From: Microbacterium kunmingense
Lineage (GTDB): Bacteria > Actinomycetota > Actinomycetes > Actinomycetales > Microbacteriaceae
Length of the DNA stretch: 64,000 nucleotides
Assembly: GCF_023155745.1 (NCBI RefSeq)
Contig: NZ_JAKNUS010000007.1
Span: 1 to 64,000 of the forward strand
Direction: 5' to 3'
The notes beneath the pieces were generated by a model. That model saw nothing but the letters and a program-made list of their open reading frames with translations, made no database searches and was not told the origin of the DNA. Shown one piece after another: positions 554 through 16,905 of the stretch (its first letter is position 1; each line of letters starts with the position of its first letter). Made by a program: the position numbers and the translations under genes.

Positions 554-949
554 ATGAGGCTCATTACTAGCATCGGTCTGGCGTTGCTACTGATGCTCGG
601 TCTGGCAGCAACGGCGCATTCGGAATCGAGTGAGGCGACGTCTATTCCGCTCGTGGTATCCGGGCTGATGGACCCGCACGTGGAACCGGTGGCCGACGCC
701 CCCGCAGAGCACGAGGAAGTCGGCAGCGGCGCATGGTCCGGATCGAACGCGCTGGCCGGTGCGGCGTTGTGTGTCTTCGGTGTTCTGTGTGGCCTCACAT
801 TCATGGTGGCTTTGCGAAGGCTATGGCACCGACGGATGCCGCCCGTTCTCCGTGAGGCACCTCGGGTGCCTTCGCTGTTTCCTGCGCCGGCCCTGAGCGC
901 GCACCCGGTCGTGTTGTCGTTGACTCAGCTGGGTCTTTCTCGAACCTGA
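554..949 (+). CDS. Small secreted or membrane protein, possibly DUF6153-like
   Basis: A protein of 131 residues. Residues 1-23 look like a signal peptide or first membrane segment (MRLITSIGLALLLMLGLAATAHS). A second hydrophobic segment lies near residues 62-84 and is followed by an arginine-rich cytoplasmic stretch, giving a two-pass layout with a short acidic outer loop. It is the first complete gene of the envelope/copper block and lies about 90 bp before the DsbA-like gene. The start at 554 is chosen because the signal-like sequence begins there; in-frame starts at 464 and 497 would add an uncharacteristic leader. Size and layout resemble DUF6153 proteins that travel with copper genes, but this is a resemblance only. 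Function unknown. Confidence 0.5.
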   Translation: MRLITSIGLALLLMLGLAATAHSESSEATSIPLVVSGLMDPHVEPVADAPAEHEEVGSGAWSGSNALAGAALCVFGVLCGLTFMVALRRLWHRRMPPVLREAPRVPSLFPAPALSAHPVVLSLTQLGLSRT

Positions 950-1042
950 CATCTGGCACGCCGCCCCGTGGTGGTGGTGTTTCGTCCCGGGCTGTGTGTG
1001 CTCGGGTGCTGTCCTGTGTTGTGTCTTGGTTTGGAGTACCCG

Positions 1043-1711
1043 ATGAAAACGTCAGTAAAGGCGACGTTGATCAGTATTGCCGTTGTGGTGGTGCTGATTG
1101 GGGCCGCGTTGATCTATGTCCTTATCAATCAGAGCAAAGCCGCTCTGCCCTCATCCGGGAACGGCTCCTCGTCGTCGCAGCTGGTGCGGCAGAACTCGCA
1201 CATTCTCGATGGCGGAGGTGAGGGAGCGGTCACGGTGGTGGAGTTCCTGGATTTCGAATGCGAGGCATGTGGGGCGTTCTACCCGATTGTGGAGGATCTG
1301 CGGGAGCAATTCGACGGGGAGATCACGTATGTGGTCCGCTACTTCCCTCTGCCGGGTCATTTCAACTCAAAGAACGCCGCGGTAGCTGCGGAAGCGGCCG
1401 CGCAGCAGGACCGGTTCGAGGACATGTACCACCGGTTGTTTGAGACTCAGGCGGAGTGGGGCGAGGCGCAGGAGTCGCGTGCCGATTTGTTCCGCGGCTT
1501 CGCGGAAGAGCTCGGCCTGGACATGGCGGCCTATGACGCCGCGGTGGCGGACCCAGCGACGACCGAGCGTGTCGAGTTTGACTTCGAGGAGGGGCGCGCT
1601 CTGGGGGTAAGGAGCACACCTACGTTCTTCATCGACGGGAAACTCGCCGAGCTGCAGGAGTGGGATGACCTGGAGAATGCCGTCCAGGCTGCGGTGAGCG
1701 GTGGGCAGTGA
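1043..1711 (+). CDS. DsbA-like membrane-anchored thiol oxidoreductase
   Basis: A protein of 222 residues. Residues 7-30 form an N-terminal membrane anchor, followed by a Ser/Gly-rich linker and a DsbA-type thioredoxin fold. The redox motif CEAC sits near residue 73 in the context FLDFECEACGAFYP, and the cis-proline loop reads RSTPTFFIDG. The family (DsbA/BdbD-like, thioredoxin_4) forms or isomerises disulfides in exported proteins. The start at 1043 has GGAG 8-10 bases upstream; the open frame extends further but without a ribosome site. The stop overlaps the next gene's ATG (TGATG). Its place beside CcdA and a TlpA-like protein suggests a local extracytoplasmic thiol-redox pathway supporting copper proteins or haem attachment. 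Confidence 0.85.
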   Translation: MKTSVKATLISIAVVVVLIGAALIYVLINQSKAALPSSGNGSSSSQLVRQNSHILDGGGEGAVTVVEFLDFECEACGAFYPIVEDLREQFDGEITYVVRYFPLPGHFNSKNAAVAAEAAAQQDRFEDMYHRLFETQAEWGEAQESRADLFRGFAEELGLDMAAYDAAVADPATTERVEFDFEEGRALGVRSTPTFFIDGKLAELQEWDDLENAVQAAVSGGQ

Positions 1712-2730
1712 TGCGGACGGGGTTGTCGCATCGTCGGGTGATCGTCGTCGGCGCCGGGCAGGCCGGTCTCGCGGTCGCTGTGGCGCTGAGCGCTGTAGGT
1801 CTTCGACCGCAACAGGATTTCGTGGTGATCGACGCGGCCCCGCCTGGGCACCGTTCCTGGGCGTCGCGGTGGCATTCGATGAAGCTGCTCAGCGACGCCC
1901 GCCACAGCGCGCTGCCTTCCCGACGGCTGCTGGGTGATCAACACCGGCATCCGCGCGCGGATGAGATGGCTGACTATCTCACTTTCGTAGAAGCAGGCTT
2001 TGGTGTGGAGACGGTCTGGGGCGTCCGCGCGACCAGGGTGGAGCATCGGGGAGATGGCTCGACATTGTTGTTGTCGACGACAGCGGGTGAGGTGCAGACC
2101 CGCAACGTGGTCTGCGCGACCGGTGCGCACACTCACCCCCGGGTTCCCGATTGGGCGAGCGGGCTGACGGTGCCAGGGGTAGTGATGCACAGCAGCGAGT
2201 ACTTGTACCCAAAAGAGATCCCCGCTGGCGACGTGCTGATCGTCGGCGGCGGAAACAGCGGTGTGCAGCTGGCCCGCGAATTATCTGCCTCGCACACCGT
2301 CACGCTGTCCGTGCGCACTCCGCGGCAGCATCGGCCTGAGAGAAGCTACCCCGCCGCAGCAGGTGAAAGCGTGTCGCTGTTGTCGCGGAAGAGGCGACCC
2401 GAGCCTGTCTTTGGCGACAGCTACGAGCGGCTTCGCCGTGCGGGCGTTACGATCACCCCCGCAGTGGAAGCCGCTAGCGGCGCGGTAGTGACCTTCGCCG
2501 ACAGCACCCACTTCTCCCCCCGATCGGTGATTCTCGCAACCGGCTACGACCCTGGTGATCGTTGGCTGCCGCAACCGCCCAGTTCTCCTCGGCCTCGGCG
2601 CACCATGACCGGTCTTCCCGGGTTGTTCGTGGCGGGGATGCCGCAGTACGGCGGTCGCGGGTCCGACACCGTGGCAGGGGTTCGGAGAGACGCGACGACG
2701 ATCGCCCAGCACATCATCAACCGGCCCTGA
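1711..2730 (+). CDS. Flavin-containing monooxygenase-like NAD(P)/FAD oxidoreductase
   Basis: A protein of 339 residues with an FAD-binding Rossmann motif at the N terminus (VVGAGQAGLAVAVAL), a central NADPH-binding motif (IVGGGNSGVQLA) and a C-terminal ATGY motif, the order found in flavin monooxygenases and thioredoxin-reductase-like enzymes. There is no CxxC redox pair, so it is not a thioredoxin reductase. Class members oxidise soft nucleophiles such as amines and thiols; the substrate here is unknown. It starts at ATG 1711, overlapping the upstream stop by one base; GTG at 1708 is also possible. Its position between a DsbA-like protein and CopC suggests a link with copper or sulfur chemistry, but that is inference. 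Confidence 0.8.
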   Translation: MRTGLSHRRVIVVGAGQAGLAVAVALSAVGLRPQQDFVVIDAAPPGHRSWASRWHSMKLLSDARHSALPSRRLLGDQHRHPRADEMADYLTFVEAGFGVETVWGVRATRVEHRGDGSTLLLSTTAGEVQTRNVVCATGAHTHPRVPDWASGLTVPGVVMHSSEYLYPKEIPAGDVLIVGGGNSGVQLARELSASHTVTLSVRTPRQHRPERSYPAAAGESVSLLSRKRRPEPVFGDSYERLRRAGVTITPAVEAASGAVVTFADSTHFSPRSVILATGYDPGDRWLPQPPSSPRPRRTMTGLPGLFVAGMPQYGGRGSDTVAGVRRDATTIAQHIINRP

Positions 2731-2743
2731 AAGGACCGAGACC

Positions 2744-3472
2744 ATGACCTCTATACCCGTTGCCGTCCGCGCATCCCGGCGCCGATCACCTACCCCCGGG
2801 GTCCGTCGACGCTCCGTTCTGCCCGGGCTGGCGGCGCTGCTGCTGACCGCCGGTCTGCTGTTCGCCGTTGCAGCTCCCGCGGCCGCGCACGATGAGATCG
2901 TCTCGTCCTCCCCGGAACCCGGTTCCACGATCACCGTGGTCCCGGAGGAGATCTCGCTGACCTTCAGCGGGGAGATTCTCACCGATTTCAGCGCGGTGAT
3001 CATCGAGGTCGTCGCGGCAGACGGGCAGAACCTCGCGTCCGGAGACCCCATCATTGACGGGACCACCGTCACCCAGGCTGTGCGGCCGGGTCAGACTGGG
3101 GTCTTCACGGTGCGGTGGCGGGTCGTCTCCAGCGACGGGCACCCGATCAGCAATGAGTACCAGTACACCGTCGAAGCCGTCGCGGTGCCCACCAGTACCC
3201 CCATCTCCGAAGCGACCGAGCAACAGACACCCGAACCGTCTGCGACGACCCCGGCCGCGACCTCCGCAGAGGTTCACAACGGCCCCTCCGGAGGGGGGGA
3301 GCTTCTACCCGTCTTCGCGGTCGTGAGCGGTGTAATCGTTGTCGGCGGCGCTCTGATTGTCGTACTCATGGTGGCTCGAGAGCGCCGCCGTCGCGACAGA
3401 GCAGCCGCAGCTGCTGCGTCCGGTCAGGGCAGCGGAGACACGAGGAAGGACGGTCCCGCTGATGAATCGTGA
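2744..3472 (+). CDS. copC: CopC domain copper-resistance protein, membrane anchored
   Basis: A protein of 242 residues. A long Arg-rich signal sequence ends at AAAAHDEI, so the mature protein would begin at or near a histidine, as in CopC proteins where this residue binds Cu(II). The CopC beta-sandwich spans about residues 47-142 (SSPEPGSTI, LTFSGEI, RWRVVSSDGHPISNEYQY). A Pro/Thr/Ser linker follows, then one C-terminal membrane helix near residues 187-210 and a basic tail. AAAGGA lies just upstream of ATG 2744. The 3' end overlaps lspA by 11 bases. The family carries copper in the extracytoplasmic space and usually partners with CopD, which is present further down this block as a CopD-CtaG fusion. 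Confidence 0.88.
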   Translation: MTSIPVAVRASRRRSPTPGVRRRSVLPGLAALLLTAGLLFAVAAPAAAHDEIVSSSPEPGSTITVVPEEISLTFSGEILTDFSAVIIEVVAADGQNLASGDPIIDGTTVTQAVRPGQTGVFTVRWRVVSSDGHPISNEYQYTVEAVAVPTSTPISEATEQQTPEPSATTPAATSAEVHNGPSGGGELLPVFAVVSGVIVVGGALIVVLMVARERRRRDRAAAAAASGQGSGDTRKDGPADES

Positions 3473-4010
3473 GCAGTCCCGACGATTCGCGATCGCCTGT
3501 CTGGCCGCCGGCGTGGTGGTCCTGATCGACCAGGCGACGAAAGCGGCCGCACTCAGCGGGTTGAGCCAGGACGAGCGCCTCCCGCTGCTGGGAGATCTGC
3601 TCGGGCTGCAGCTCGCATTCAATCCGGGCGCGATCCTCTCTCTCGGCGCCGGGTTCACGGGGCTACTCACTCTCCTCGGCGTCGGCGCGGTGGTGGTGTT
3701 GATCGTCGCCGCGGCGCGGGCACGGACGGGATGGTGGGCGGTGGGGATCGGGCTGATCCTGGGCGGCGCGATCGGCAACGTGATCGACCGGCTGTTCTCC
3801 CCGCCTGGCTTCGGGGTCGGGCACGTCACCGACTTCCTCGCCTACGGAACCCTCTTCATCGGAAACCTCGCCGATGTCGCCCTCGGCGCGGGCGTGATCG
3901 TGCTCGGCCTGAACATCTGGGTCCGAGACCGGCGCGCCCGCACGGACACAACGAATGACGGGGTGACCGGCGGGGCAGCGCCGGCGGGATCGGCGGTGAG
4001 CGGGTCATGA
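3462..4010 (+). CDS. lspA: Lipoprotein signal peptidase (signal peptidase II), copy 1
   Basis: A 182-residue, four-helix membrane protease of the LspA family that removes the signal peptide from diacylglyceryl-modified prolipoproteins. The family's conserved blocks are present: LIDQATK in helix 1, FNPGA, GGAIGNVIDRL with the first catalytic Asp, and VGHVTDFLAYG with the second. The start at 3462 lies inside the copC 3' end and gives the standard LspA length. The stop overlaps the next start (ATGA). A second, similar lspA lies at 23857 in the cadmium block. The likely local client is the lipoprotein encoded at 4339, whose signal ends in LLAGC. Confidence 0.93.
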   Translation: MNREQSRRFAIACLAAGVVVLIDQATKAAALSGLSQDERLPLLGDLLGLQLAFNPGAILSLGAGFTGLLTLLGVGAVVVLIVAAARARTGWWAVGIGLILGGAIGNVIDRLFSPPGFGVGHVTDFLAYGTLFIGNLADVALGAGVIVLGLNIWVRDRRARTDTTNDGVTGGAAPAGSAVSGS

Positions 4011-4342
4011 TGGCTAAGCAGCGCACCCCGTCTGTGTATCAGCGCAACGCGTTCGCCCCGGGGCTGCTTGCGGCCGCGGTGTTGTTCCTCGCGCCGGTTC
4101 TGATGGGCGGGGACTGGTTCACGCTGGTGCTGTTCGTCACCGCGATCTTCGCGGTCATCGTCGGCTGGTTCGCGATTCAGGCGCGGCAGTGGTGGTGGGT
4201 GCCGGTGTTCGCAGCGATCGTGGTGATCTGGAACCCGGTGTTCCCGTTTCCGTTCACTGGCCCGGTGTGGACGGCCGCGCAACCGGTCGCCGCGGTCGTG
4301 TTCCTGGTGGCCGGCGCACTGATCAAGGTCAAGCGACCATGA
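4007..4342 (+). CDS. Small multi-pass membrane protein (DUF6804-like)
   Basis: A 111-residue protein with about four hydrophobic helices (around residues 17-34, 36-52, 59-74 and 86-104) separated by short loops; an aromatic-rich turn (RQWWWVPVF) sits in the middle. Both ends are translationally coupled: ATGA with lspA upstream and ATGA with the TlpA-like lipoprotein downstream. The layout resembles small actinobacterial membrane proteins grouped as DUF6804. No catalytic or metal-binding motif is visible and the function is unknown; its place between lspA and a thioredoxin-like lipoprotein suggests a role in the membrane part of the same envelope pathway. Confidence 0.6.
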   Translation: MMAKQRTPSVYQRNAFAPGLLAAAVLFLAPVLMGGDWFTLVLFVTAIFAVIVGWFAIQARQWWWVPVFAAIVVIWNPVFPFPFTGPVWTAAQPVAAVVFLVAGALIKVKRP

Positions 4343-4941
4343 ACCACCGCCCTCTGATCGCCACCGCCTCGGTTCTGCTTGTGGTTGGGCTGCTCGCCGG
4401 GTGCGGATCCAGCGACTCGCTCGCGCAGCAGTACCGGGACGGGAACGAGAAAGGCTACATCTCCGGCGACTTCCAGATCGTCGAGATCCCCGACGCCGAT
4501 CGTGGAGAGCCGGTGGTGTTCGAAGGCGTCACCGAGACCGGCGAGACGGTGTCCAGCGACGACTACCGCGGCGGGGTGCTGGTGGTGAACTTCTGGTACG
4601 CCGCCTGCGGGCCATGCATCGTCGAGGCGCCGCTGCTCGAGGAGGTCTGGCAGGAGTACCAGGAGCAGGGTGTCGCGTTCCTCGGGGTCAACACCTACGA
4701 CCAGCCCGCGACCGCACTGTCTTTCGCCCGCGACAACAACGTCACCTACCCGAGCGTGATCGACGTGAACGACGGCAAAGTGAAACTCGCATTCGCGCAG
4801 GTCACCCCAATCCAGGCCACCCCCACCACCCTGGTTATCGACCAGGAAGGGCGGGTCGCCGCGCGGATCATCGGGCAATTGGCCAGCGCATCGATCCTGT
4901 CCACCCTGGTCGCCGACACCCTCGCAGAGGACAGCTCGTGA
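4339..4941 (+). CDS. TlpA/ResA-like thioredoxin-fold lipoprotein
   Basis: A 200-residue lipoprotein. The signal peptide ends in LLAGC, so Cys 22 should be lipidated and cleaved by LspA. The thioredoxin-fold domain (about residues 50-190) has the active site YAACGPC (WxxxCGPC type) and a cis-proline loop QATPTTLVID. ResA/TlpA/CcmG-like proteins reduce apocytochrome cysteines or thiols of copper-site proteins, taking electrons from CcdA, which is encoded by the next overlapping gene. It starts at ATG 4339 (ATGA overlap) and stops inside the GTGA start of ccdA. Function as the thiol-reducing arm of a System II cytochrome c or copper-centre assembly path is strongly suggested by context. Confidence 0.9.
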   Translation: MNHRPLIATASVLLVVGLLAGCGSSDSLAQQYRDGNEKGYISGDFQIVEIPDADRGEPVVFEGVTETGETVSSDDYRGGVLVVNFWYAACGPCIVEAPLLEEVWQEYQEQGVAFLGVNTYDQPATALSFARDNNVTYPSVIDVNDGKVKLAFAQVTPIQATPTTLVIDQEGRVAARIIGQLASASILSTLVADTLAEDSS

Positions 4942-5705
4942 ACCCGGGAGCGGTCATCGTCGACGGTGCCCTGTGGGTCGCGATCCCGGTCGCGATCCTC
5001 GCCGGGCTGGTCTCCTTCGTGTCCCCGTGCGTTCTCCCACTGGTGCCCGGTTACCTCGGCTACCTCGGCAGCACCACCACCACCACAACATCTCCCACCG
5101 TGAACGGCGGGCGCACCGCCACTGCGGAGCGCGCCCGGCTGCTGCTTGGCGTAACACTATTCATCGCCGGGTTCACGATCGTCTTCGTCGCCGTAACGAT
5201 CCTCGGGGGCACCTTCGGATACCTGCTGCTGCAATACGCGGGCATCCTCACCCGTGTGTTCGGGATCATCATCATCGCCCTCGGGCTGGTGTTCCTCGGC
5301 TTCTTCGGCATCGCGCAGCGCACCCTCCGCCCCCGCACCCAGGGCAGGGCCGGGCTGATCGGCGCGCCGCTCTTGGGGTTCGCGCTCGGCGTCGGCTGGA
5401 CCCCCTGCATCGGCCCGACACTCGCGGCGATCATCTCGATGTCGTGGAACCTCGGCGACCCCGCCCGCGCCGGCCTGCTCGGGCTGGCGTACTCGCTGGG
5501 CCTAGGCATCCCGTTCCTGATCCTCGCGGCCGGGTGGGGCTGGGCGTCCCGATCGGTCACGTTCCTGCGCCGCCACATCCGGGCGCTGAACATCATCGGC
5601 GGGGCCATGCTCATCGCCCTCGGCCTGCTGATGGTCACGGGACTGTGGACGGCGCTGATGTCGCAGCTGCAACAGGTGGTGATCAATGTCCCCCTCCCGC
5701 TCTGA
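4938..5705 (+). CDS. ccdA: CcdA/DsbD-family transmembrane thiol-disulfide transporter
   Basis: A 255-residue, roughly six-helix membrane protein of the CcdA family, which passes reducing equivalents from cytoplasmic thioredoxin across the membrane. The redox cysteines are in the conserved contexts FVSPCVLPLVPGYLGYLG in helix 1 and GVGWTPCIGPTLAAI in helix 4. A threonine-rich loop (a run of Thr near residue 47) follows helix 1. It starts at GTG 4938 in a GTGA overlap with the TlpA-like lipoprotein, its likely electron acceptor. It overlaps resB by 20 bases, which implies co-translation. This is the complete ResA-like/CcdA/ResB order of a System II cytochrome c maturation operon. Confidence 0.93.
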   Translation: MNPGAVIVDGALWVAIPVAILAGLVSFVSPCVLPLVPGYLGYLGSTTTTTTSPTVNGGRTATAERARLLLGVTLFIAGFTIVFVAVTILGGTFGYLLLQYAGILTRVFGIIIIALGLVFLGFFGIAQRTLRPRTQGRAGLIGAPLLGFALGVGWTPCIGPTLAAIISMSWNLGDPARAGLLGLAYSLGLGIPFLILAAGWGWASRSVTFLRRHIRALNIIGGAMLIALGLLMVTGLWTALMSQLQQVVINVPLPL

Positions 5706-7380
5706 CACCGGCACCGACGTCACAGCCGACCCGCTGCGGCCCCGTGACCACGCCGACACCGACGTCGATACCGCAACCGAGATCACCCAGCCGGCACTCG
5801 GCATCACGGGCTGGCTGCGGTGGGCGTGGCGGCAACTGACCAGCATGCGCACCGCGCTGGTGCTGCTGCTGTTCCTCGCCATCGCCGCCGTGCCCGGGTC
5901 GCTGTTCCCGCAACGCAGCGCCGACCCCAACGGGGTCATCCAGTGGGAGCGAAACAACCCCGACGTGTTCCCGCTAGCGGACGCGGTTGGGCTGTTCGAC
6001 GTGTACCTGTCGCCGTGGTTCTCCGCGATTTACCTGCTGCTGTTCACTTCCCTGATCGGTTGCGTGATTCCACGCGCCAAGCATCATTACAAGGCGCTGC
6101 GCACTCGCCCGCCGCGCACCCCGGCGCGGCTATCACGCCTGTCCGAGTACCGAGAGGCCACCATCCCGGTAGGGGACGCGCAGCCCGACGTCGCCGCGCA
6201 CGCGGTTGACGTCGCGGCAGAGCAGCTGCGTAAGTCCGGGTACCGGGTGGAACGCTACGACGCCCGCGGCGCCGCGTCGGTGTCTGCCGAGCGCGGATAC
6301 CTGCGGGAAACCGGCAACCTCATCTTCCACGTCGCCCTCGTCGGGGTGCTGGTCTCGGTGGGAATCGGCGGGTCGTTCGCGTACACGGGGCAACGAGTGG
6401 TGGTGGAAGGCACCACGTTCGTGAACGCGCTCAGCGACTACTCCTCGTTCAACCCCGGCCGGTTCGTCGACGGCACAGGTCTTGCCCCCTACTCGCTCAC
6501 CCTCGATGACTTCCAGGTCTCCTACCGGCTCCCTGGCACCCCGGGCGCAGGCCAGGCCGGCGACTTTTCCGCGGACGTCACCATCCGCCAGCCTGGGCAG
6601 GATGACCGGCCGCAGAACGTGATCGTGAATTACCCGATCACCGTCGAGGGTGACCGGATCTACCTGCTCGGCAACGGCTACGCCCCCACCCTCACGATCC
6701 GCGACGCCGCCGGCGAGGTGGTGTACAGCGAGTCGCAGCCGTTCCTGCCGCAGGACGGCAACATGACCTCGCTAGGGATCATCAAGATCCCGGATGGGCT
6801 ACCCGAACAGGTCGGGTTGGTCGGGTTCTTCTACCCCACCCAGGGCGTCTTGCCCTCCGGCGCGTTTACCTCGATCTACCCCGACGTCATCAATCCCGTG
6901 ATGACGCTCAATGTGTTCAGTGGTGATCTGGGCATCGACGACGGCACTCCGAGATCGGTGTACACGCTCGAAGTGGACGGGCTGACCCAGCACACCGGCG
7001 GCGACACCGCGGTCGATTCGCTCGAGCTCACTCCCGGCGCCACAGTGGACCTGCCGAACGGGTGGGGCACTATTACGTGGGAGGAGGTCACGGCGGAGGA
7101 GCCGGTGAAGCGGTTCGCGTCGTTGCAGATCCAACGGGACCCCAGCAGCGGCTGGGTGCTCGCGTTCTCGGTCCTTGCCACCCTGGGCCTGTTCGCCGGC
7201 CTGTTCGTGCCCCGCCGGCGGCTCTGGGTGAAAGCGCACACCACCCCGGGTGGCGTGCACGTCGAATACGCGGGGCTGGCCCGCGGCGAAGACCCTGCGT
7301 TGGCACGCGCCGTCGACGAGTTCGCGGCCCGCCACGCGCAGATCCTCGGCGTAGACCAGCCGGCGAAGGGTACGCTGTGA
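5686..7380 (+). CDS. resB: Cytochrome c biogenesis protein ResB (Ccs1)
   Basis: A 564-residue ResB-family protein: N-terminal helices (SMRTALVLLLFLAIAAVPGSLFPQR and a second near residues 110-128), a third helix near residue 215 (LIFHVALVGVLVSVGIG), a large extracytoplasmic beta-rich domain (about residues 235-480) and a last helix near 490-508. The PGSLFPQR block is characteristic. With CcsB (12325-13341) it forms the System II haem-export and cytochrome c synthetase complex. It overlaps ccdA by 20 bases and the next gene through GTGA. The CcsB partner is separated by four genes, unlike usual resB-ccsB pairs, so other functions have been inserted into this operon. Confidence 0.92.
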   Translation: MSPSRSDTGTDVTADPLRPRDHADTDVDTATEITQPALGITGWLRWAWRQLTSMRTALVLLLFLAIAAVPGSLFPQRSADPNGVIQWERNNPDVFPLADAVGLFDVYLSPWFSAIYLLLFTSLIGCVIPRAKHHYKALRTRPPRTPARLSRLSEYREATIPVGDAQPDVAAHAVDVAAEQLRKSGYRVERYDARGAASVSAERGYLRETGNLIFHVALVGVLVSVGIGGSFAYTGQRVVVEGTTFVNALSDYSSFNPGRFVDGTGLAPYSLTLDDFQVSYRLPGTPGAGQAGDFSADVTIRQPGQDDRPQNVIVNYPITVEGDRIYLLGNGYAPTLTIRDAAGEVVYSESQPFLPQDGNMTSLGIIKIPDGLPEQVGLVGFFYPTQGVLPSGAFTSIYPDVINPVMTLNVFSGDLGIDDGTPRSVYTLEVDGLTQHTGGDTAVDSLELTPGATVDLPNGWGTITWEEVTAEEPVKRFASLQIQRDPSSGWVLAFSVLATLGLFAGLFVPRRRLWVKAHTTPGGVHVEYAGLARGEDPALARAVDEFAARHAQILGVDQPAKGTL

Positions 7381-8318: not shown

Positions 8319-8321
8319 ACC

Positions 8322-9941: not shown

Positions 9942-11341
9942 ACACGCCACGGGAGAGGCCTGCCGGAGGTCGACTTGCCGGGTCGCGGCGAATGCTGGCG
10001 ACGGGCAGTGATCTCACCCTTCCTGATGATTTGATGGCGGAGGAGTGTGGGTGCGCGCCCACGCCCGCGGAGAGCCGCGCATTCCGGGCTGGTGTGGGCC
10101 GGCGCACTCTGCTGACCGCGGGAATATTGAGCTCGGTCGCCGTCCTGGTCGGCGGCCCGCTGCTGCCGCCAGCGTTCGCGGCGACCTATCCGTCCTGGGA
10201 GGACGTGCAAGCCGCGAAAGCAAAGGAGGCCACCAAAGCCGCTGAGGTGCAGCGGATCCAGGGCCTTATCCAGAGCCTGAACGGTGAGGTGGCGCGCACC
10301 CGCACCGCCGCCGAGCAGGCCGCTGGTGCGTTCTACACCGCCCAGCAGGAGTATTTCGACGCCTCCTTCCGGGCCGACACGTTGGAGTCCCAAGCCGACG
10401 TGGAAGCGCAAAACGCGGCCGATGCGGCGAACAAGGCCGGCCGCATCGCCGCGCAGCTATACCGCGATGGGGGCGACACAGCCTCCCTTGAACTGTTCTT
10501 TTCCGGGTCGGCAGCGACCGCGGACGATCTCCTGTCCCGGCTGGGCGTGATGGACAAGCTGCTGGAACGCAACCAGGGAGCGTATGCGGCCGCGATCACC
10601 GCCCGCGATGCTGCGCAGAGCCTCACCGATCAGGCCGTGGTCGCCCGAAACGAACGGGACCGGCTGCAGCAGGTCGCCGAGCAGAAGATGCTCGAGTCGC
10701 AGCAGGCCGCGGATGCCGCACAGGCCGCGGTGGACGCGCAGACTCTCCATCTCGGCGAGTTGCAGGCCCAGCTCGCCGCCCTCGAGGACACCACCGCGAA
10801 AACCATCGCCGATTATCAGGCTGGAATCGAGGCTGCCCGCATCGCCGAGGAGCAGCGGCGAGCGGCGGAGCGTGCCGAAGCAGAACGGCTCGCCGCCTCG
10901 GGCGGCGGCGGGGGTGTGGTCAGCTCCGGATGGGCACGGCCGACATCAGGGAATCGCACGTCGGGGTTCGGGCCGCGCAGCTCCCAGTGCGGAAACGGGT
11001 ACTGCTCGACCAGCTATCACTACGGCGTGGATCTCAGCGGCGGCTGCGGCGCGGGGATCTATGCCGTCGCGGCGGGCACCGTCGTCTACGCCGGGTACAA
11101 CGGTGGCTACGGCAACTACATCAAGATCGACCACGGCGAGGGGATCGGCACCGGGTACGCCCACATCCGCAACGGCGGCTTCTACGTCGGGTACGGGCAA
11201 CGCGTGAATGCTGGCGACCTGATCGCCCGTGAGGGAGAGACCGGCAACGCGTTCGGCTGCAACCTCCACTTCGAAGTGTACGTGGGCGGCTCCCCGGTCA
11301 ACCCCGCCACTTTCCTCGCCGCTCGCGGCGTCTCCATCTGA
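9938..11341 (+). CDS. Coiled-coil M23-family envelope protein with altered active-site motif
   Basis: A 467-residue exported protein. Residues about 50-82 resemble a Tat signal (GRRTLLTAGILSS ... AFA), followed by a long Ala/Glu/Gln-rich coiled coil (about 85-325), a Gly-rich hinge and a C-terminal LytM/M23 domain (about 340-467). The first metal motif is present (HYGVDLS), but the usual HxH motif reads NLHFEV: the first His, normally catalytic, is Asn. EnvC/NlpD-type proteins with degenerate LytM domains activate amidases rather than cut peptidoglycan, so a non-catalytic or regulatory role is plausible. It overlaps lnt by 4 bases. The next gene is a second M23 protein with an intact motif. 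Confidence 0.85.
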   Translation: MNTPRERPAGGRLAGSRRMLATGSDLTLPDDLMAEECGCAPTPAESRAFRAGVGRRTLLTAGILSSVAVLVGGPLLPPAFAATYPSWEDVQAAKAKEATKAAEVQRIQGLIQSLNGEVARTRTAAEQAAGAFYTAQQEYFDASFRADTLESQADVEAQNAADAANKAGRIAAQLYRDGGDTASLELFFSGSAATADDLLSRLGVMDKLLERNQGAYAAAITARDAAQSLTDQAVVARNERDRLQQVAEQKMLESQQAADAAQAAVDAQTLHLGELQAQLAALEDTTAKTIADYQAGIEAARIAEEQRRAAERAEAERLAASGGGGGVVSSGWARPTSGNRTSGFGPRSSQCGNGYCSTSYHYGVDLSGGCGAGIYAVAAGTVVYAGYNGGYGNYIKIDHGEGIGTGYAHIRNGGFYVGYGQRVNAGDLIAREGETGNAFGCNLHFEVYVGGSPVNPATFLAARGVSI

Positions 11342-11350
11342 CCGGAAATG

Positions 11351-11357
11351 AAGGAGG
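11351..11357 (+). promoter_or_regulatory. Strong ribosome binding site fixing the start of the second M23 gene
   Basis: AAGGAGG lies 5 bases before ATG 11363. An in-frame ATG at 11348 lies upstream of this site and so cannot use it, which fixes the start at 11363. Confidence 0.8.
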
Positions 11358-11362
11358 ACACC

Positions 11363-12244
11363 ATGGCTGAACGGACCACCCCAACGGGGGATCACCTCCA
11401 GTCGGTCCCGACACGACGCAGTCTTCGAGGGCTCGCGACACCGCCTCCCGCTTCGTGCGCATCCGTGACGTCGCGCGCGCCCAGTGCAGCAAGTGCTCTG
11501 CGTAGGCCGACGTCGTTGCGCCCAGCACGGACGCTGGTAGTCCTTGCGATGGTTGCTGGTCTCGTTGCCACTTTTGCTCTCCCGGCGTACGGGGCTTGGC
11601 AGCCCGCGGACTTGGAAACCCGCTCACTGCAGCAGGTCGCTTTGGAGGACGCGCAGTCATTGGTCGTCGCGTCCGATGCGGGCGCAGCGCAGCTCACCCG
11701 CGACAGCTACGCTGCCACCAGTCAGGAGGAGATTGATCAGAAAAAGGCGCGAGAAGCAGCGGCACAAGCAGCCGCTGAGCGTGCGCGGGCGTCCGCGCAG
11801 GTCGCGTCGGTACCGTTCGACTACGGCATGGTGCCCCCTGGCAGCGGAGCCGTGCGGTGGCCGGTCGGTGGCCCGTTCACTGTGACAGACAGGTTTGGAG
11901 CTCGCGGCGGCGCGCACATGGGGACCGACATGGTCGCTGCCGGCGGCACCCCCGTCTACGCCTCCGTCGACGGTGTCGTGCGGATTTCACAGGACAGCTA
12001 CGGCGCATACGGGGTCACCGTCGTCGTGGAATCCGTTCTGAACGGGCAACAGGTGAGGACGGTGTACCCCCACATGCAAACCGGCAGCCGACAGGTCGCC
12101 GCCGGTCAGACCGTCACGGCCGGGCAGACCGTCGGACTCGTGGGCAGCACGGGCCGCTCCACCGCGAACCATCTGCACTTTGAGGTCTACCTCGACGGAA
12201 CCGCCGTGGACTCGCTGGCCTGGCTGGAAGCGAACGCGGGCTGA
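11363..12244 (+). CDS. M23-family metallopeptidase with intact zinc motif
   Basis: A 293-residue exported protein. A membrane or signal segment lies near residues 50-72 (TLVVLAMVAGLVATFALPAYGA) after a basic leader; a short Ala/Arg-rich helix follows (about 125-145), then the LytM domain (about 160-290). Both zinc motifs are present: HMGTDMV and HLHFEV, so peptidoglycan endopeptidase activity is expected outside the membrane. The start is set by AAGGAGG at 11351. It pairs with the preceding M23-like protein, whose HxH motif is degenerate, suggesting an active enzyme plus a partner that shape the wall locally, perhaps to admit an envelope complex. The next gene is ccsB. Confidence 0.88.
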   Translation: MAERTTPTGDHLQSVPTRRSLRGLATPPPASCASVTSRAPSAASALRRPTSLRPARTLVVLAMVAGLVATFALPAYGAWQPADLETRSLQQVALEDAQSLVVASDAGAAQLTRDSYAATSQEEIDQKKAREAAAQAAAERARASAQVASVPFDYGMVPPGSGAVRWPVGGPFTVTDRFGARGGAHMGTDMVAAGGTPVYASVDGVVRISQDSYGAYGVTVVVESVLNGQQVRTVYPHMQTGSRQVAAGQTVTAGQTVGLVGSTGRSTANHLHFEVYLDGTAVDSLAWLEANAG

Positions 12245-12324
12245 CCCATGTGCCGCACGGATCTTCCGCACCACCCCGCTCGCGGGCACTCCCTGACCGA
12301 GATAACGAAGAGGACGACCCTGCC

Positions 12325-13341
12325 ATGACCGGAACCGACCCGCTCTCCCTCGACGGCATCTCACTGCTGCTGGTGTGGACGTCGATCGGCACCTACCTGC
12401 TTGCGTTCATCGCGTACACCATCGACCTGGCTCAACGCTCCGTCCCCGCCGGCGTCCCACAGCAAGAGCCGGTCCTGGCCGGCGCTACCGCCCGGGCGAG
12501 CCAGCAGACGGAAAAGGCCCAGAGTGGGGCGGTGGATAGCGTTCGCACGCCGCCTCCACAGCGGCAACGGCTGCTGTGGGCACGGATCGGAACGTCGCTG
12601 ACGGTCCTCGCGTTCCTGTTCCACCTGGCCGGCACCATCCTGCGCGGGATCGCCGCAGAGCGGGTGCCATGGGCGAACATGTACGAGTTTGCGCTAACCG
12701 GCACCGTCTTGATCGTCGCCGTCTACCTGCTGGTGCTGCGCCGCTACGACCTCCGCTTCCTGGGTGCGTTTCTCATCGGCATGGTGGTGCTGCTGCTCGG
12801 CGGGGCGACAATCTCGTTCTACGTCGAAGTTGTGCCGCTGATGGATCCGCTCAAGAGCGTGTGGCTGGTCATCCACGTCTTCGTCGCCTCCCTGGCCACC
12901 GCCCTGTTCGCGATCGCCTGCGGCATCTCCATCACCCAGCTCCTGCAGGCCCGCCGTGAGCGCCGCGCCCGAGCATCCTCGGATACTGCCCACCCCGCCG
13001 GTCCCGGGTTCTTGCGCACTCTGCCCACCGCCGACGTGCTCGAGTCCCTCGCCTACCGGTTCGCGATCGTGGGGTTCGTGTTTTGGACCTTCACCCTGAT
13101 TGCCGGTGCGATCTGGGCCAACGACTCCTGGGGTCGCTACTGGGGCTTCGACGTCAAGGAAGTGTGGACGTTCGTGATCTGGGTGGTCTATGCCGGGTAC
13201 ATCCACGCCCGCGCGACCCGGGGGTGGCGTGGCACCCGCTCCGCCTGGCTGTCCATCATCGGGTTCGTCGCGGTGTTGTTCAATTTCACAATCGTGAACA
13301 TGTTCTTCCAGGGCCTCCACTCCTACTCCGGCCTCACTTGA
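12325..13341 (+). CDS. ccsB: Cytochrome c biogenesis protein CcsB/ResC
   Basis: A 338-residue protein of the CcsA/CcsB/ResC family with about eight membrane helices. The blocks WANMYEF, HVFVASLATALFAIACG and the tryptophan-rich haem-handling motif WGRYWGFDVKEVWTFVIW are all visible. It acts with ResB (5686-7380) to carry haem outward and attach it to CXXCH motifs. The start at 12325 gives the usual N-terminal outer segment and first helix; an alternative GTG start at 12250 would add 25 charged residues. The gene continues the envelope operon, but four genes now separate it from its ResB partner. Confidence 0.92.
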   Translation: MTGTDPLSLDGISLLLVWTSIGTYLLAFIAYTIDLAQRSVPAGVPQQEPVLAGATARASQQTEKAQSGAVDSVRTPPPQRQRLLWARIGTSLTVLAFLFHLAGTILRGIAAERVPWANMYEFALTGTVLIVAVYLLVLRRYDLRFLGAFLIGMVVLLLGGATISFYVEVVPLMDPLKSVWLVIHVFVASLATALFAIACGISITQLLQARRERRARASSDTAHPAGPGFLRTLPTADVLESLAYRFAIVGFVFWTFTLIAGAIWANDSWGRYWGFDVKEVWTFVIWVVYAGYIHARATRGWRGTRSAWLSIIGFVAVLFNFTIVNMFFQGLHSYSGLT

Positions 13342-13381: not shown

Positions 13382-14074
13382 ATGCCTTCGAACCGCTCGA
13401 ACTCGACCAACAGGTCTCAACATGGGCCGGTGACCGTCAAACAACAGCGTGAGCAAAAGCGCCAACAAAAGTTGGCCAAGTATCAGAAGCAGCTCGCCAA
13501 ACGCCGTCGCAGCAAACTGGTCTGGTGGGTTGTCGGGTCAACGGCGGCTGTGGTGATCATCGGCCTCGTCGTTGCGTCCGTCGTGCTCGCACCGTTACCG
13601 CCAAGACAGTACGAAGCCGGCAGCGAAGGGGCAACCATTGAAGGAGTCCAGACCTTCGAGAACACGGCTGAGCACGTCGCCGGTGCTGTCCAGTACGAGC
13701 AAAGCCCTCCAGCGGGCGGCCCGCACAACGCCGTCTGGTTGAACTGCGGCATTTATGACCAACCGGTCCCGAATGAGAACGCGGTCCACTCCATGGAGCA
13801 CAGCGCTGTGTGGGTGACCTACAACCCCGACGAGGTCGCCGGTGAACAACTCGGAACCCTCAAGAGCCTTCTGCCCGCAACCTACGTCGTTCTCTCGCCT
13901 TATGAGGGACTGGATGCGCCGATCGTGATGTCCAACTGGAACCAGCAGCTGAAGGTTGATTCGGCGAACGACGAGCGTATCGGCGCCTTTTTCGAAGAGT
14001 ACTGGCGCAGCCAGAACGCGCCTGAGCCGAACGCCGCCTGCACTGGCGCATACGACGCACCGGGAAAACAATGA
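13382..14074 (+). CDS. DUF3105 membrane-anchored protein
   Basis: A 230-residue protein: a very basic cytoplasmic N terminus (VKQQREQKRQQKLAKYQKQLAKRR pattern, about residues 18-43), one membrane helix (about 47-70) and an outer domain with the DUF3105 blocks YEQSPPAGGPHNAVWLNCGIY and AVHSMEHSAVWVTY. The conserved His, Cys and Met residues in these blocks are plausible metal ligands, but no function has been assigned to the family that can be cited from sequence alone. The stop overlaps the next gene's ATG (ATGA); DUF3105 and DUF305 genes occur as neighbours in actinobacteria. Confidence 0.85.
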   Translation: MPSNRSNSTNRSQHGPVTVKQQREQKRQQKLAKYQKQLAKRRRSKLVWWVVGSTAAVVIIGLVVASVVLAPLPPRQYEAGSEGATIEGVQTFENTAEHVAGAVQYEQSPPAGGPHNAVWLNCGIYDQPVPNENAVHSMEHSAVWVTYNPDEVAGEQLGTLKSLLPATYVVLSPYEGLDAPIVMSNWNQQLKVDSANDERIGAFFEEYWRSQNAPEPNAACTGAYDAPGKQ

Positions 14075-14754
14075 GCCGCAGTGAAACCAGCGACGCGTCC
14101 CCATCCCGAGGGTGGCCGCGGTGGTGGATCGTCGTCCTTATCCTGCTCGCGGTCGGCGCGCTGACCTTCGCTGCGGGGCGCTTCTCAACTTTCGGGTCGC
14201 AGGGCGCGGGCACACCGGGTACCGACTCTCCCGAGGCGGGGTTCTCACGCGACATGCAGGTGCATCACGCGCAGGCCATCCAGATGGCCATGGAGATCTA
14301 CCGCAAGACATCCGACGAGGAACTGAGGATCTTCGCGTACGACATCGCCACCGGGCAGGCGGGCCAGCGCGGCGAGATGTACGACTGGCTCGTGCAGTGG
14401 GGGCTGTCGCAGTCCGGTGGCCCGATGATGCAGTGGATGGATGCCTCTCCGGGTGGGAGCGACCATGCGATGTCTGACGGTGCGGCAATGACGGAGGAAG
14501 AGGCGCGCATCGCGATGGGCATGGCCTCCAGCGAAGAGATCTCCGCTTTGGAGGGCGCGACCGGGCAGCAAGCCGATTGTCTCTTCCTCGGGCTGCTCAC
14601 TCGCCACCACGAAGGAGCCATCCCCATGGCGGAAGCGCTCATCGAACTCGGCACAGATCCACGTGCCCTGACCGTCGCAGAGAACATCAAGAACGGACAG
14701 ACCGCCGAGATTAGCGCCATGAAATCCATGCAGGCGCGGATCGGCTGCGAATAA
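14071..14754 (+). CDS. DUF305 (CopM-like) membrane-anchored protein
   Basis: A 227-residue protein with one N-terminal membrane helix (about residues 20-40) and an outer ferritin-like helical DUF305 domain. The characteristic His/Met-rich pairs are present: FSRDMQVHHAQAIQMAM near the start, a Met-rich middle (GGPMMQWM), and LLTRHHEGAIPMAEAL near the end. DUF305 includes the copper-binding protein CopM, so extracytoplasmic copper binding is likely. It is translationally coupled to the DUF3105 gene by an ATGA overlap. A gap of about 150 bp follows before the CopD-CtaG gene. Confidence 0.88.
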   Translation: MSRSETSDASPSRGWPRWWIVVLILLAVGALTFAAGRFSTFGSQGAGTPGTDSPEAGFSRDMQVHHAQAIQMAMEIYRKTSDEELRIFAYDIATGQAGQRGEMYDWLVQWGLSQSGGPMMQWMDASPGGSDHAMSDGAAMTEEEARIAMGMASSEEISALEGATGQQADCLFLGLLTRHHEGAIPMAEALIELGTDPRALTVAENIKNGQTAEISAMKSMQARIGCE

Positions 14755-14904
14755 CACCCGACTGCACCTCCGCGGCGGGTGCCGCAAACCTGCTCCGCCT
14801 GGCTGCGAATGATCCCGACCCGAGGGAACCACCGTGACCCCAACGCCCAGAAAACGTCTCGCAGGCGACCGCGCGGCGAGCAACCCGATTCACACCGTGC
14901 ACGA

Positions 14905-16905
14905 ATGATGTCGCGCAGCAGAGAGATCAATTACCGCACGTTGCGGGTACTCGGGCCGACGATCCTCGTTGGGGTGGCACTCGCTGTGCTGGTCGGCGCA
15001 CTGGCATTCGGTGGCGGCGCTGCACAGCTCCCCCTCGGTGATGCCGGCCCGGTCGTACGCTGGGGGCTTCCGGCCGCGAAGCTGATCGTGAACCTCGCCG
15101 CGGCGGGAATGGTCGGTGTGCTCGTGACGGCGTTGTTCACGTTGCGGACGGGTGAGCGCGAGTTCGATATCGCCCTCGATACCGCCTCGATCTCCGCCGC
15201 CGTGTTCACCGTGGCGGCCGGTACGACCGGGTTCCTCACGTTTCTCAGCGTCTTCAACCCCGCGATCGACGTCGGACCGCAGTTCGGTGCCCAGCTCGGA
15301 CGGTTTCTCGTCGAACTCGAGGTGGGCCGGACGTGGCTGATCACAACGGTCGCGGGCGCAGCACTCACCGTTCTGACATTCGCGGTGCGGTCCTGGGTTG
15401 GAACGCTTCTGGTCGCCCTGCTGGCGGTCTCCTCGCTCGTGCCGATGGGCACGCAAGGGCACTCCGGTGATGACGCCCTTCACCGCGAGGCGATGATGGC
15501 GCTCATCCTGCACATCATCGGCGCCGCGGTGTGGCTCGGCGGTCTCCTCTTGCTCGTCGCCATCCGTCCAGTCCTCCAGCGGCAGCGCATCGCCGATGTC
15601 GTCGCCCGCTACTCAAGCATCGCCTTGGCCGCGTTCGTGCTCGTCGCCATATCCGGCATGGTGCGCGCGGCGATCGGCCTGCAGCAGTGGTCGGACCTGC
15701 TCTCCCCTTATGGCGCAATCTTGGCCGTGAAGGTTGTCGCGCTGGTCGGTCTCGGACTGTTCGGCGCGTGGTACCGCATGCGGCTGATCGGCAAGATGCG
15801 CGGTTCTGACGGGGCATCCCGCCCCTTCTGGATCTTGATTGTGTTCGAGTTGGCGTTGATGGGCGTCGCCAGCGGTGCCGCTGCAGCGCTGGCCCGCACC
15901 CCTCCCCCGAACCCGGCCCCGCTTCCTGCGACCCCGACGCCAGCGGAACGCCTCACCGGCGCACCGCTGCCCGCGGAGCTCACGATCGAACGGTGGGTCA
16001 CCGCATGGAACATCGATCTGCTGTGGGCGGTGATCGCCGGATTTGCGATCTTCTTCTACCTTGCCGGGGTATGGCGACTGCGCCGCCGCGGCGACCCCTG
16101 GCCGGTACACCGCACGATCATGTGGGTCACCGGCATGATGCTGCTGGTGTGGGTCACCGGCGGAGTCATCAACGTCTACCAGGACTACCTGTTCAGCATG
16201 CACATGCTCGGCCACATGCTGCTCACGATGGCGATCCCCGTGCTGCTGGTCGCTGGTGCCCCCGTGACCCTGGCGGCCCGGGCGATCCACAAGCGCGATG
16301 ACGGCACGCGCGGCGGCCGCGAGTGGATCCTCTGGGCGGTGCACACCCCCATCGCCCGCGTACTGACGAACCCCTTCGTCGCTGCGGGGCTGTTCATCGG
16401 GTCGCTCTGGGCGTTCTACTACACCGATCTCTTCCGCTGGTCGCTCTACGACCACCTCGGACACGAGTGGATGATCGCCCACTTCCTCATCACCGGATAC
16501 CTCTTCGCCCTCACCCTGATCGGCATCGACCCGGTGCCCTGGCGCCTCCCGTACGCGGGCCGGCTGCTGCTGCTCATCGGCGTCATGGCGATGCACGCCT
16601 TCTTCGGGGTGGCGATGATGATGCAGACCGGGCTCATGGTCGCCGAGTGGTTCGGGTCGATGGGACGTACATGGGGCCCCTCTCCGCTCGAGGACCAGTA
16701 CATCGGCGGCGGTCTCGCGTGGTCGGTCGGCGAGATACCGACGCTCATTCTCGCCATTACGGTGGCGATTCAGTGGAGCCGCAGCGACGCCCGCGACCAG
16801 AAGCGCAGCGACCGCCACGCCGACCGCACCGACGACGCCGAGCTCGAGGCGTACAACGCGCACCTCACCGCGCTGGCGAAGAAGGACGCCCGTGACCGAA
16901 GATGA
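14905..16905 (+). CDS. CopD-CtaG fusion membrane protein
   Basis: A 666-residue polytopic protein combining two copper-related modules. The N-terminal half (to about residue 330) is CopD-like, with HREAMMALILHIIGAAVWLGGLLLL. The C-terminal half (about 360-650) is CtaG-like, with HMLGHMLLTMAIPVLLVAGAP, DHLGHEWMIAHFLITGYLF, HAFFGVAMMMQ and EDQYIGGGLAWSVGEIPTLI. CopD imports copper across the membrane with CopC, while CtaG-type proteins serve oxidase copper insertion, so the fusion may couple copper uptake to delivery. The start is at ATG 14905 (ATG 14908 is adjacent). It closes the envelope block; an IS3 element inserts 11 bases after its stop. Confidence 0.88.
   Translation: MMSRSREINYRTLRVLGPTILVGVALAVLVGALAFGGGAAQLPLGDAGPVVRWGLPAAKLIVNLAAAGMVGVLVTALFTLRTGEREFDIALDTASISAAVFTVAAGTTGFLTFLSVFNPAIDVGPQFGAQLGRFLVELEVGRTWLITTVAGAALTVLTFAVRSWVGTLLVALLAVSSLVPMGTQGHSGDDALHREAMMALILHIIGAAVWLGGLLLLVAIRPVLQRQRIADVVARYSSIALAAFVLVAISGMVRAAIGLQQWSDLLSPYGAILAVKVVALVGLGLFGAWYRMRLIGKMRGSDGASRPFWILIVFELALMGVASGAAAALARTPPPNPAPLPATPTPAERLTGAPLPAELTIERWVTAWNIDLLWAVIAGFAIFFYLAGVWRLRRRGDPWPVHRTIMWVTGMMLLVWVTGGVINVYQDYLFSMHMLGHMLLTMAIPVLLVAGAPVTLAARAIHKRDDGTRGGREWILWAVHTPIARVLTNPFVAAGLFIGSLWAFYYTDLFRWSLYDHLGHEWMIAHFLITGYLFALTLIGIDPVPWRLPYAGRLLLLIGVMAMHAFFGVAMMMQTGLMVAEWFGSMGRTWGPSPLEDQYIGGGLAWSVGEIPTLILAITVAIQWSRSDARDQKRSDRHADRTDDAELEAYNAHLTALAKKDARDRR

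What the first reader, a model, noticed from the sequence alone, without database searches (positions are those of the whole stretch)
554..16905. A dense envelope operon joins copper handling, cytochrome c maturation, thiol redox, lipoprotein processing and wall hydrolysis
Seventeen plus-strand genes run with mostly 1-4 base overlaps: DsbA-like, flavin monooxygenase-like, CopC, LspA, TlpA-like lipoprotein, CcdA, ResB, CtaG, Lnt, two M23 proteins, CcsB, DUF3105, DUF305 and CopD-CtaG. A System II haem-attachment set is present, but no gene here encodes an exported CXXCH cytochrome. The combination looks like a self-contained kit for building or protecting an extracytoplasmic copper or haem protein, and is the best candidate in this window for an undescribed system.
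Basis: partly seen in the sequence, partly recalled or inferred. Interest (0 to 1): 0.78.

Follow-up and report, generated by a model that had tools for sequence, protein, structure and literature searches.

The report
Mobile spare kit for respiratory-chain assembly
Soil bacteria of the genus Microbacterium pass around, inside metal-resistance islands, a 16-kb gene cassette that carries second copies of tools needed to assemble their own respiratory chain on the cell surface, probably so that breathing survives copper or other toxic metals.

Summary
In detail: 17 plus-strand genes (497-16905), tightly packed, with copper, System II, thiol-redox, lipoprotein and wall-hydrolase families and no CXXCH protein. 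The host is Microbacterium. The block is a discrete cassette (ends about 470 and 16,900). Of the best 80 ResB-centred loci, 34 carry accessory blocks, 45 carry none of the 12 extra families, one is intermediate. It moves horizontally: accessory ResB is 93-100% identical between nine genomes whose housekeeping ResB is 63-81% identical. It is not the host's only cytochrome locus; separate copies exist of System II, CtiP (CopD-CtaG), LspA, Lnt and DUF3105-DUF305. It brings no recognised client: all 31 of 149 genomes with two or more ResB have only the two CBB3 domains expected of QcrC, and extra CtaD is not associated. Known roles of the core genes converge on the host bcc-aa3 supercomplex (dihaem QcrC, lipoprotein CtaC, copper centres). 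Best reading: a mobile backup assembly line for that supercomplex within metal-resistance islands. Looser versions, some with ctaD, lie on plasmids of other actinobacterial genera. Metal induction and tolerance benefit are inferred, not shown. My searches of an open-access library found no description of such a module.

The parts
470..496 (+). Left edge of cassette and putative promoter (conserved TAGGCT about 7 bases before ATG 497)
   Evidence: Homology to the M. sediminis plasmid and L074 begins at 470; further upstream the sequence differs between groups of loci
497..949 (+). orf1: small protein with signal peptide and TM, function unknown
   Evidence: found in most close copies; no Pfam or NCBIfam hit
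1043..1711 (+). DsbA-like thioredoxin protein (CEAC)
   Evidence: Thioredoxin_4 6e-26; CXXC at 73
1708..2730 (+). FAD/NAD(P) oxidoreductase, ArsO-related but below the ArsO cut-off
   Evidence: Pyr_redox_3 1e-24; ArsO 136 bits against cut-off 425
2744..3472 (+). CopC with a C-terminal TM stretch
   Evidence: PF04234 3e-21
3462..4010 (+). LspA, signal peptidase II
   Evidence: PF01252; both catalytic Asp motifs kept and aligned to solved LspA
4007..4342 (+). DUF6804 small membrane protein
   Evidence: PF20619 4e-14
4339..4941 (+). TlpA/ResA-like thioredoxin lipoprotein (lipobox LAGC, CGPC)
   Evidence: lipobox and motif
4938..5705 (+). CcdA
   Evidence: DsbD_TM; two Cys
5686..7380 (+). ResB (System II)
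   Evidence: PF05140 1e-131
7377..8318 (+). Caa3_CtaG
   Evidence: PF09678 2e-68
8322..9941 (+). Lnt, apolipoprotein N-acyltransferase, E-K-C triad motifs kept
   Evidence: TIGR00546 above cut-off
9938..11341 (+). M23 metallopeptidase-family protein
   Evidence: PF01551 2e-26
11348..12244 (+). second M23 metallopeptidase
   Evidence: PF01551 1e-23
12250..13341 (+). CcsB/ResC (System II haem exporter/lyase subunit)
   Evidence: TIGR03144 above cut-off
13382..14074 (+). DUF3105
   Evidence: PF11303 1e-43; a second DUF3105-DUF305 pair lies on contig C24
14071..14754 (+). DUF305, related to copper chaperone CopM
   Evidence: PF03713; CopM model 4e-20, below cut-off; CopM structures matched
14779..16905 (+). 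CopD-Caa3_CtaG fusion (CtiP type)
   Evidence: PF05425 and PF09678; 76% identical to the host's other copy on C1
17276..25007 (.). Downstream metal island: IS3 transposase, Nramp (-), cation-efflux CDF, P-type ATPase, second LspA, CadD

Best explanation
A horizontally mobile backup assembly line for the host's own bcc-aa3 respiratory supercomplex, carried in metal-resistance islands. Under copper (possibly other metal) stress the outward-facing, thiol- and metal-dependent assembly steps are expected to fail. The cassette supplies second copies of those steps: CcdA/TlpA thiol reduction and ResB-CcsB haem attachment for dihaem QcrC; LspA and Lnt for the lipoprotein CtaC (and TlpA itself); CopC, CtaG and CopD-CtaG (CtiP) for the copper centres; a DsbA-like protein for oxidative folding; CopM-like DUF305 as copper buffer. 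Shown here: cassette conservation, horizontal spread, purifying selection, separate host copies, absence of a recognised new client, lipobox on CtaC. Inferred: expression under metal, service to the supercomplex, tolerance benefit. Unexplained: the FAD enzyme, DUF6804, orf1, DUF3105 and the M23 pair.
For: Cassette unit: of the best 80 (of 246) ResB-centred loci, 34 carry at least 4 of the 12 extra block families, one carries 3, 45 carry none. Horizontal spread: accessory ResB 93-100% identical among 9 genomes whose housekeeping ResB are 63-81% identical; the housekeeping loci fetched for this each have TlpA-CcdA-ResB-CcsB and match other housekeeping ResB best (12 of 12). Purifying selection. 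Duplicated functions: own genome has 3 ResB, 3 CcsB (one with an internal stop), 4 Lnt, 3 LspA (two in the window) and 3 Caa3_CtaG domains (two in the block), with separate copies of TlpA-CcdA-ResB-CcsB, CtiP and DUF3105-DUF305. No recognised client: one COX1 and one CBB3/Cytochrom_C protein, QcrC, in the genome; all 31 of 149 genomes with two or more ResB have exactly two CBB3 domains, as expected of one QcrC; more than one COX1 match in 2 of those 31 (G044, 88% complete in 650 contigs; G090, 68% complete) against 13 of the other 118. Convergence on the supercomplex: own CtaC has lipobox LAGC; the review PMC9145763 (passages) lists CtaG, CcdA, ResA, ResB, ResC, LspA and Lgt among proteins for B. 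subtilis caa3, and CtiP (CopD-CtaG) with CopC for the C. glutamicum bc1-aa3 supercomplex. Copper link: copper excess raises C. glutamicum periplasmic thioredoxin, ccsA and ccsB mRNA 3.6-4.6-fold (PMC3140484, passages); copper impairs lipoprotein acylation in E. coli (PMC6538781, passages); copper affects cytochrome c assembly in a Rubrivivax copI mutant (cited in PMC6247083, passages). ctaD itself lies near such genes on Rhodococcus, Kocuria, Gordonia and Pseudonocardia plasmids.
Against: No expression or phenotype data. No metal regulator among the 17 genes, and the copper-response claim rests on relatives. Assembly factors Sco/PCuAC, Surf1, CtaA, CtaB and Lgt are not in the block. FAD enzyme, DUF6804, orf1 and the two M23 proteins have no clear place; peptidoglycan hydrolases also occur in 3 of 4 control plasmid windows, so that link is not specific. 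The cytochrome count covers PF13442 (149 genomes) and PF00034 (own genome) only; other c-type cytochromes would be missed, and the one-QcrC reading was checked by sequence only in the own genome. Neighbours include Zn/Cd-type genes, so the metal may not be copper alone. Accessory blocks vary: several loci lack M23a, CopC, the flavoprotein or CopD-CtaG, and only a minority have DUF3105-DUF305. Selection is not uniformly strict: against AK009 M23a has dN/dS 0.70 and CopC 0.39, on few changes.
Confidence: 0.55

Rival explanations
1. Ordinary copper-handling island: CopC, CopD-CtaG, CtaG, DUF305 and DsbA bind, move or oxidise copper at the cell surface, and the System II and lipoprotein genes serve only to mature the island's own TlpA lipoprotein and thiol balance, with no service to the respiratory chain.
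For: Copper families in the block; metal transporters next to it; a lipoprotein-modifying gene in a copper operon has a precedent in Listeria lit2 (PMC7387801 and PMC12345273, passages).
Against: ResB and CcsB have no role in copper handling that I know of (recalled), yet both are kept under purifying selection in the cassette (dN/dS 0.08 and 0.14 against M. sediminis) and are present in most accessory loci.
Confidence: 0.22
2. Copper-scarcity module: the extra CopC/CopD-CtaG/CtaG set scavenges and inserts copper into the oxidase when copper is scarce, rather than protecting it from excess.
For: In C. glutamicum CopC and the CopD part of CtiP are proposed to import copper for the oxidase (PMC9145763, passages).
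Against: The cassette lies in islands with P-type ATPases, CDF and CadD and plasmid relatives sit among metal-transport genes; System II and Lnt are not needed for copper uptake.
Confidence: 0.1
3. Dedicated kit for an unrecognised client (an exported haem or copper protein lacking CXXCH, or encoded elsewhere).
For: Self-contained set; several proteins without function; System II present without a local cytochrome.
Against: No excess of CBB3-type cytochromes or CtaD in 31 genomes with extra ResB; in 39 accessory loci the only CXXCH after a hydrophobic stretch (ORFs of 80 aa or more; 6 CXXCH ORFs in all) is one doubtful ORF, and CtaD occurs only in the Rhodococcus and Kocuria plasmids.
Confidence: 0.1

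Closest known systems
System II cytochrome c maturation (ResB-CcsB with CcdA and TlpA/ResA)
   Same: All four parts present, same order TlpA-CcdA-ResB as the host housekeeping locus
   Different: Accessory duplicate on a mobile cassette; CcsB separated from ResB by CtaG, Lnt and two M23 genes; no apocytochrome nearby
C. glutamicum CtiP-CopC oxidase copper-insertion pair
   Same: CopD-Caa3_CtaG fusion and CopC with a C-terminal TM stretch (PMC9145763 passages)
   Different: Here a second copy beside a host CtiP (76% identical), joined to System II and lipoprotein genes
Transmissible copper operons with lipoprotein-modifying enzymes (Listeria lit2)
   Same: Mobile copper-linked locus carrying an enzyme of lipoprotein N-terminal modification (PMC7387801, passages)
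   Different: Here Lnt and LspA with a respiratory assembly set; copper induction not shown
C. glutamicum copper stimulon (CopRS regulon; hemL, ccsA, ccsB genes)
   Same: Copper response includes TlpA-like and System II genes (PMC3140484, passages)
   Different: There chromosomal System II genes respond; here there is a mobile second copy with no CopRS in the cassette
Cadmium/zinc cassettes with P-type ATPase and lspA (as at 21902-25007)
   Same: Extra lspA in a metal island
   Different: That neighbour lacks System II and oxidase factors

Membership tests
System II cytochrome c biogenesis | ResB and CcsB both present and open | tested here: met
System II cytochrome c biogenesis | Thiol-reduction arm CcdA plus TlpA/ResA | tested here: met
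System II cytochrome c biogenesis | A CXXCH apocytochrome to act on | tested here: met
   Not in window 1-26000 but in the genome: QcrC with two CXXCH on C2
System II cytochrome c biogenesis | Haem attachment activity | not testable with these tools
   needs experiment
bcc-aa3 supercomplex assembly factor set | Caa3_CtaG / CtiP-type CopD-CtaG and CopC | tested here: met
bcc-aa3 supercomplex assembly factor set | Lipoprotein processing, with a lipoprotein subunit II in the host | tested here: met
   LspA and Lnt in block; CtaC lipobox
bcc-aa3 supercomplex assembly factor set | Sco/PCuAC, Surf1, haem A synthesis (CtaA, CtaB) | tested here: not met
   none of the 17 block proteins matches these families at E 0.001; so the block is a partial set
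Copper resistance island | Copper-binding/transport families | tested here: met
   CopC, CopD, DUF305
Copper resistance island | Copper-responsive regulator in the locus | tested here: inconclusive
   none among the 17 genes; the window begins at the contig end, so the true upstream is not seen; the M. sediminis copy has ArsR-type regulators nearby
Copper resistance island | Confers copper tolerance | not testable with these tools
   needs experiment

The most novel reading that the evidence does not exclude
Resistance to metals by carrying a spare of the poisoned factory: a mobile cassette that duplicates the extracytoplasmic assembly line of the respiratory supercomplex, so that electron transport can be rebuilt while metal inactivates the host's own copy. 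Looser versions, some including ctaD, lgt or VKOR, lie in metal islands on plasmids of several actinobacterial families, which would make this a general, unrecognised resistance strategy.
Probability: 0.4. Interest if true: 0.72.

Novelty: new variant of a known kind. Interest (0 to 1): 0.55.

Why it matters
If true, it explains why metal-resistance plasmids of Actinobacteria carry cytochrome c maturation, lipoprotein and oxidase-assembly genes. It also names the steps that metals poison at the cell surface and makes a testable case of resistance by duplicating the target pathway rather than by export or sequestration.

Tried and rejected
Considered and set aside. (1) Host's only cytochrome locus: rejected, three ResB and three CcsB in the genome. 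(2) A functional change in the CcsB WWD motif of the cassette (W to F): rejected, the same F is in most Microbacterium housekeeping copies read, including the host's own, while Cryobacterium and others have W. (3) The cassette as a recent duplicate of the host's ResB: rejected; in the ResB tree 24 accessory rows of the Microbacterium-type blocks (one from a record titled Planococcus) are split from the housekeeping rows by a branch with support 100/99. That tree holds 75 rows: identical ResB sequences were collapsed, rows under 400 aa dropped, and the 20 loci (L053-L072) left out; two rows were in no group. Row L109 was a wrong reading frame with no ResB similarity and I disregard it; the tree was not rebuilt without it. 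The tree's own count gives 4 label changes for accessory against housekeeping: three distant plasmid copies (L006, L007, L010) fall among housekeeping rows, and L109 sits outside; the ungrouped L018/L144 also fall among housekeeping rows. (4) Peptidoglycan hydrolases as a specific part: not established, since 3 of 4 control plasmid windows also have one. (5) Fold of DUF3105: AlphaFold model too poor to use (mean pLDDT 38.9); no fold search was made. Solved-structure search with DUF3105 gave only weak haemoglobin hits that I take for chance (best E 0.04). (6) M23a HxH comparison across loci was uninformative. (7) The alignment of upstream regions showed no obvious operator to my eye; the promoter scan tool was not used. 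(8) Literature: searches listed no description of this module; not all of them aimed at it, and the library is open-access only. (9) DUF3105 is not specific to accessory blocks: 123 of 396 genomes of the order have it.
Full report
WHAT IS THERE. The window is bases 1-64000 of a 190,889-base contig (C26) of a 3.5-Mb genome; the closest named relatives of the block place it in Microbacterium. Nine of 16 junctions overlap, seven by exactly 4 bases. No ORF of 60 aa or more in window 1-26000 has CXXCH. Catalytic motifs of LspA and Lnt, the CXXC motifs of DsbA and TlpA and two cysteines of CcdA are present.

A DISCRETE CASSETTE. DNA homology to the M. sediminis plasmid copy and to L074 begins at window base 470 and ends at 16,874 (DUF3105-DUF305 missing between); with the closest relative (Microbacterium sp. 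AK009) it runs from 187 to 16,928. Sequence upstream differs between groups of loci (the window, AK009 and L093 share theirs), while about 85 bases before base 554 are conserved in the nine loci aligned, with TAGGCT followed by an ATG at 497 that I read as a leaderless start. Of 246 loci found with ResB in named genomes the best 80 were kept; 34 carry at least 4 of the 12 extra block families, one (L144) carries 3 and 45 carry none, most of these showing just TlpA, CcdA, ResB and CcsB, i.e. the housekeeping locus. The query was the accessory ResB, so these are not prevalence figures. In 149 genomes of the genus 144 have ResB and 31 have two or more (counted; a few, such as G044 and G090, are incomplete assemblies in which one gene may be counted in pieces).

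IT MOVES. In nine genomes the accessory ResB proteins are 93-100% identical while the housekeeping ResB proteins of the same genomes are 63-81% identical. Four further genomes in that call carry more distant accessory copies, 77-81% identical to the window's. All 12 housekeeping loci fetched for this show TlpA, CcdA, ResB and CcsB together and match other housekeeping ResB best. The same block lies on the M. sediminis plasmid NZ_CP038257 and inside chromosome-sized contigs (e.g. G137, G120). The ResB tree separates 24 accessory rows from the housekeeping rows (100/99; L109 disregarded as a wrong frame), while three distant plasmid copies fall elsewhere. The 15 genes that could be compared with M. 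sediminis show dN/dS of 0.05-0.23; against L084 all 17 lie between 0.08 and 0.30; against the near-identical AK009 M23a gives 0.70 and CopC 0.39 on few changes. Against AK009 the block is mosaic: LspA to CcdA 80-95% identical at protein level, DUF305 and CopD-CtaG 94-95%, the rest 97.8-100%.

NOT THE HOST'S ONLY COPY, AND NO RECOGNISED CLIENT. The genome has a housekeeping TlpA-CcdA-ResB-CcsB on C27 (64, 56, 65 and 65% identical to the block), another CopD-CtaG on C1 (76%), a DUF3105-DUF305 pair on C24 (64 and 61%), another LspA on C2 (37%) and Lnt on C25 (63%), the last two taken as housekeeping by inference. It also has two further accessory islands, on C8 (P-type ATPase with HMA, DUF305, M23, ResB, a CcsB with an internal stop, TlpA, CcdA, flavoprotein, Lnt) and on C28 (Lnt 75%, M23, DUF305). 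Yet it has one COX1 and one protein with CBB3/Cytochrom_C domains, the dihaem QcrC. Across the 149 genomes, every one of the 31 with two or more ResB has exactly two CBB3 domains, as expected for one QcrC; four domains occur only in G091 and G132, each with one ResB, and none in G016, G023 and G131. COX1 gives more than one match in 2 of the 31 (G044, 88% complete; G090, 68% complete) and in 13 of the other 118. So extra maturation machinery does not come with an extra cytochrome of this family or an extra oxidase.

WHAT THE GENES HAVE IN COMMON. Passages of the review PMC9145763 list Caa3_CtaG, CcdA, ResA, ResB, ResC, LspA and Lgt among twelve proteins for cytochrome caa3 in B. subtilis. They describe CtiP of C. 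glutamicum as a CopD-Caa3_CtaG fusion whose loss destabilises the bc1-aa3 supercomplex and which is proposed to work with CopC. The host's CtaC has a lipobox, LAGC, so its maturation should need LspA and, where lipoproteins are triacylated, Lnt (inference); QcrC needs System II. The core of the block is therefore a partial duplicate of the supercomplex assembly line. Sco/PCuAC, Surf1, CtaA, CtaB and Lgt are not in it.

WHY IN METAL ISLANDS. Downstream are an IS3 transposase, Nramp, a CDF exporter, a P-type ATPase, a second LspA and CadD. Published passages tie copper to the duplicated steps: copper excess raises C. glutamicum periplasmic thioredoxin, ccsA and ccsB mRNA (PMC3140484), copper impairs lipoprotein acylation in E. 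coli (PMC6538781), copper affects cytochrome c assembly in a Rubrivivax mutant (as cited in PMC6247083), and a lipoprotein-modifying enzyme sits in a mobile copper operon of Listeria (PMC7387801, PMC12345273). On plasmids I looked at 13 Lnt-centred regions (one per actinobacterial genus, picked by hand from the 60 listed of 274 records, Microbacterium twice). Twelve of 13 have a named metal transporter, metal regulator, CopC or CtaG gene within the stretch; the thirteenth (Streptomyces pFRL4) has only DUF305 and a cupredoxin domain. All 13 have a System II or thioredoxin-type gene; 3 have ctaD (Rhodococcus, Gordonia, Pseudonocardia), and a further plasmid region found through CcsB (Kocuria) has it too. 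Four control windows elsewhere on four plasmids list no metal-transport, System II, lipoprotein-enzyme or Dsb gene, though three have a peptidoglycan hydrolase. PLSDB gene tables are incomplete, the sample is small, and the Proteobacterial records among the 274 were not examined.

MECHANISM. Most likely (0.55): a backup assembly line for the bcc-aa3 supercomplex, used when metal disables the host's own outward-facing factors. Shown: composition, conservation, movement, selection, duplication, lack of a recognised new client. Inferred: metal induction, action on QcrC/CtaC/CtaD, tolerance. Rivals are an ordinary copper island whose System II serves only its own thiol balance (0.22), a copper-scarcity module (0.10) and a dedicated kit for an unknown client (0.10).

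NOVELTY. Parts are known; the mobile combined set and its reading as target-pathway duplication were not found in ten searches of an open-access library, not all aimed at it (listings). One paper on Arthrobacter plasmids (PMC6305408, passages) notes plasmid CcdA-DsbA clusters but reads them as tied to sulfur metabolism. I rate it a new variant of a known kind.

Noticed in passing
window 21902-25007: P-type ATPase, a second LspA and CadD overlap as a Cd/Zn-type cassette; the ATPase region (21648-23874) is 87% identical to DNA just upstream of the block in M. hominis (L077:1-2231).
   Followed up: partly
G000:C8 (L018:12179-13239): The CcsB of the second accessory island in the same genome carries an internal TGA, while ResB, TlpA and CcdA around it are open; related islands in other genomes have an uninterrupted CcsB (L070-L072).
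   Followed up: no
G000:C28 about 139200-144500 (L190): A third accessory locus: Lnt 75% identical to the window's, with weak orf1- and DsbA-like stretches, an M23 and a DUF305 gene.
   Followed up: partly
window 9938-11341: The first M23 protein has no HxH motif (NLH in its place) and a CGC near its N-terminus, so it may not be an active peptidase.
   Followed up: no
L105 and L126: Microbacterium sp. Marseille-Q6648 carries two different accessory ResB islands next to each other in opposite directions on one contig.
   Followed up: no
L092, L127: Records titled Planococcus sp. and an Acidobacteria MAG carry Microbacterium-like blocks; perhaps mislabelled or contaminated assemblies.
   Followed up: no
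window 3462-5705 against L073: Mosaic: LspA to CcdA differ by 6-16% in DNA from AK009 while most other genes are 97-100% identical, suggesting gene conversion within the block.
   Followed up: partly
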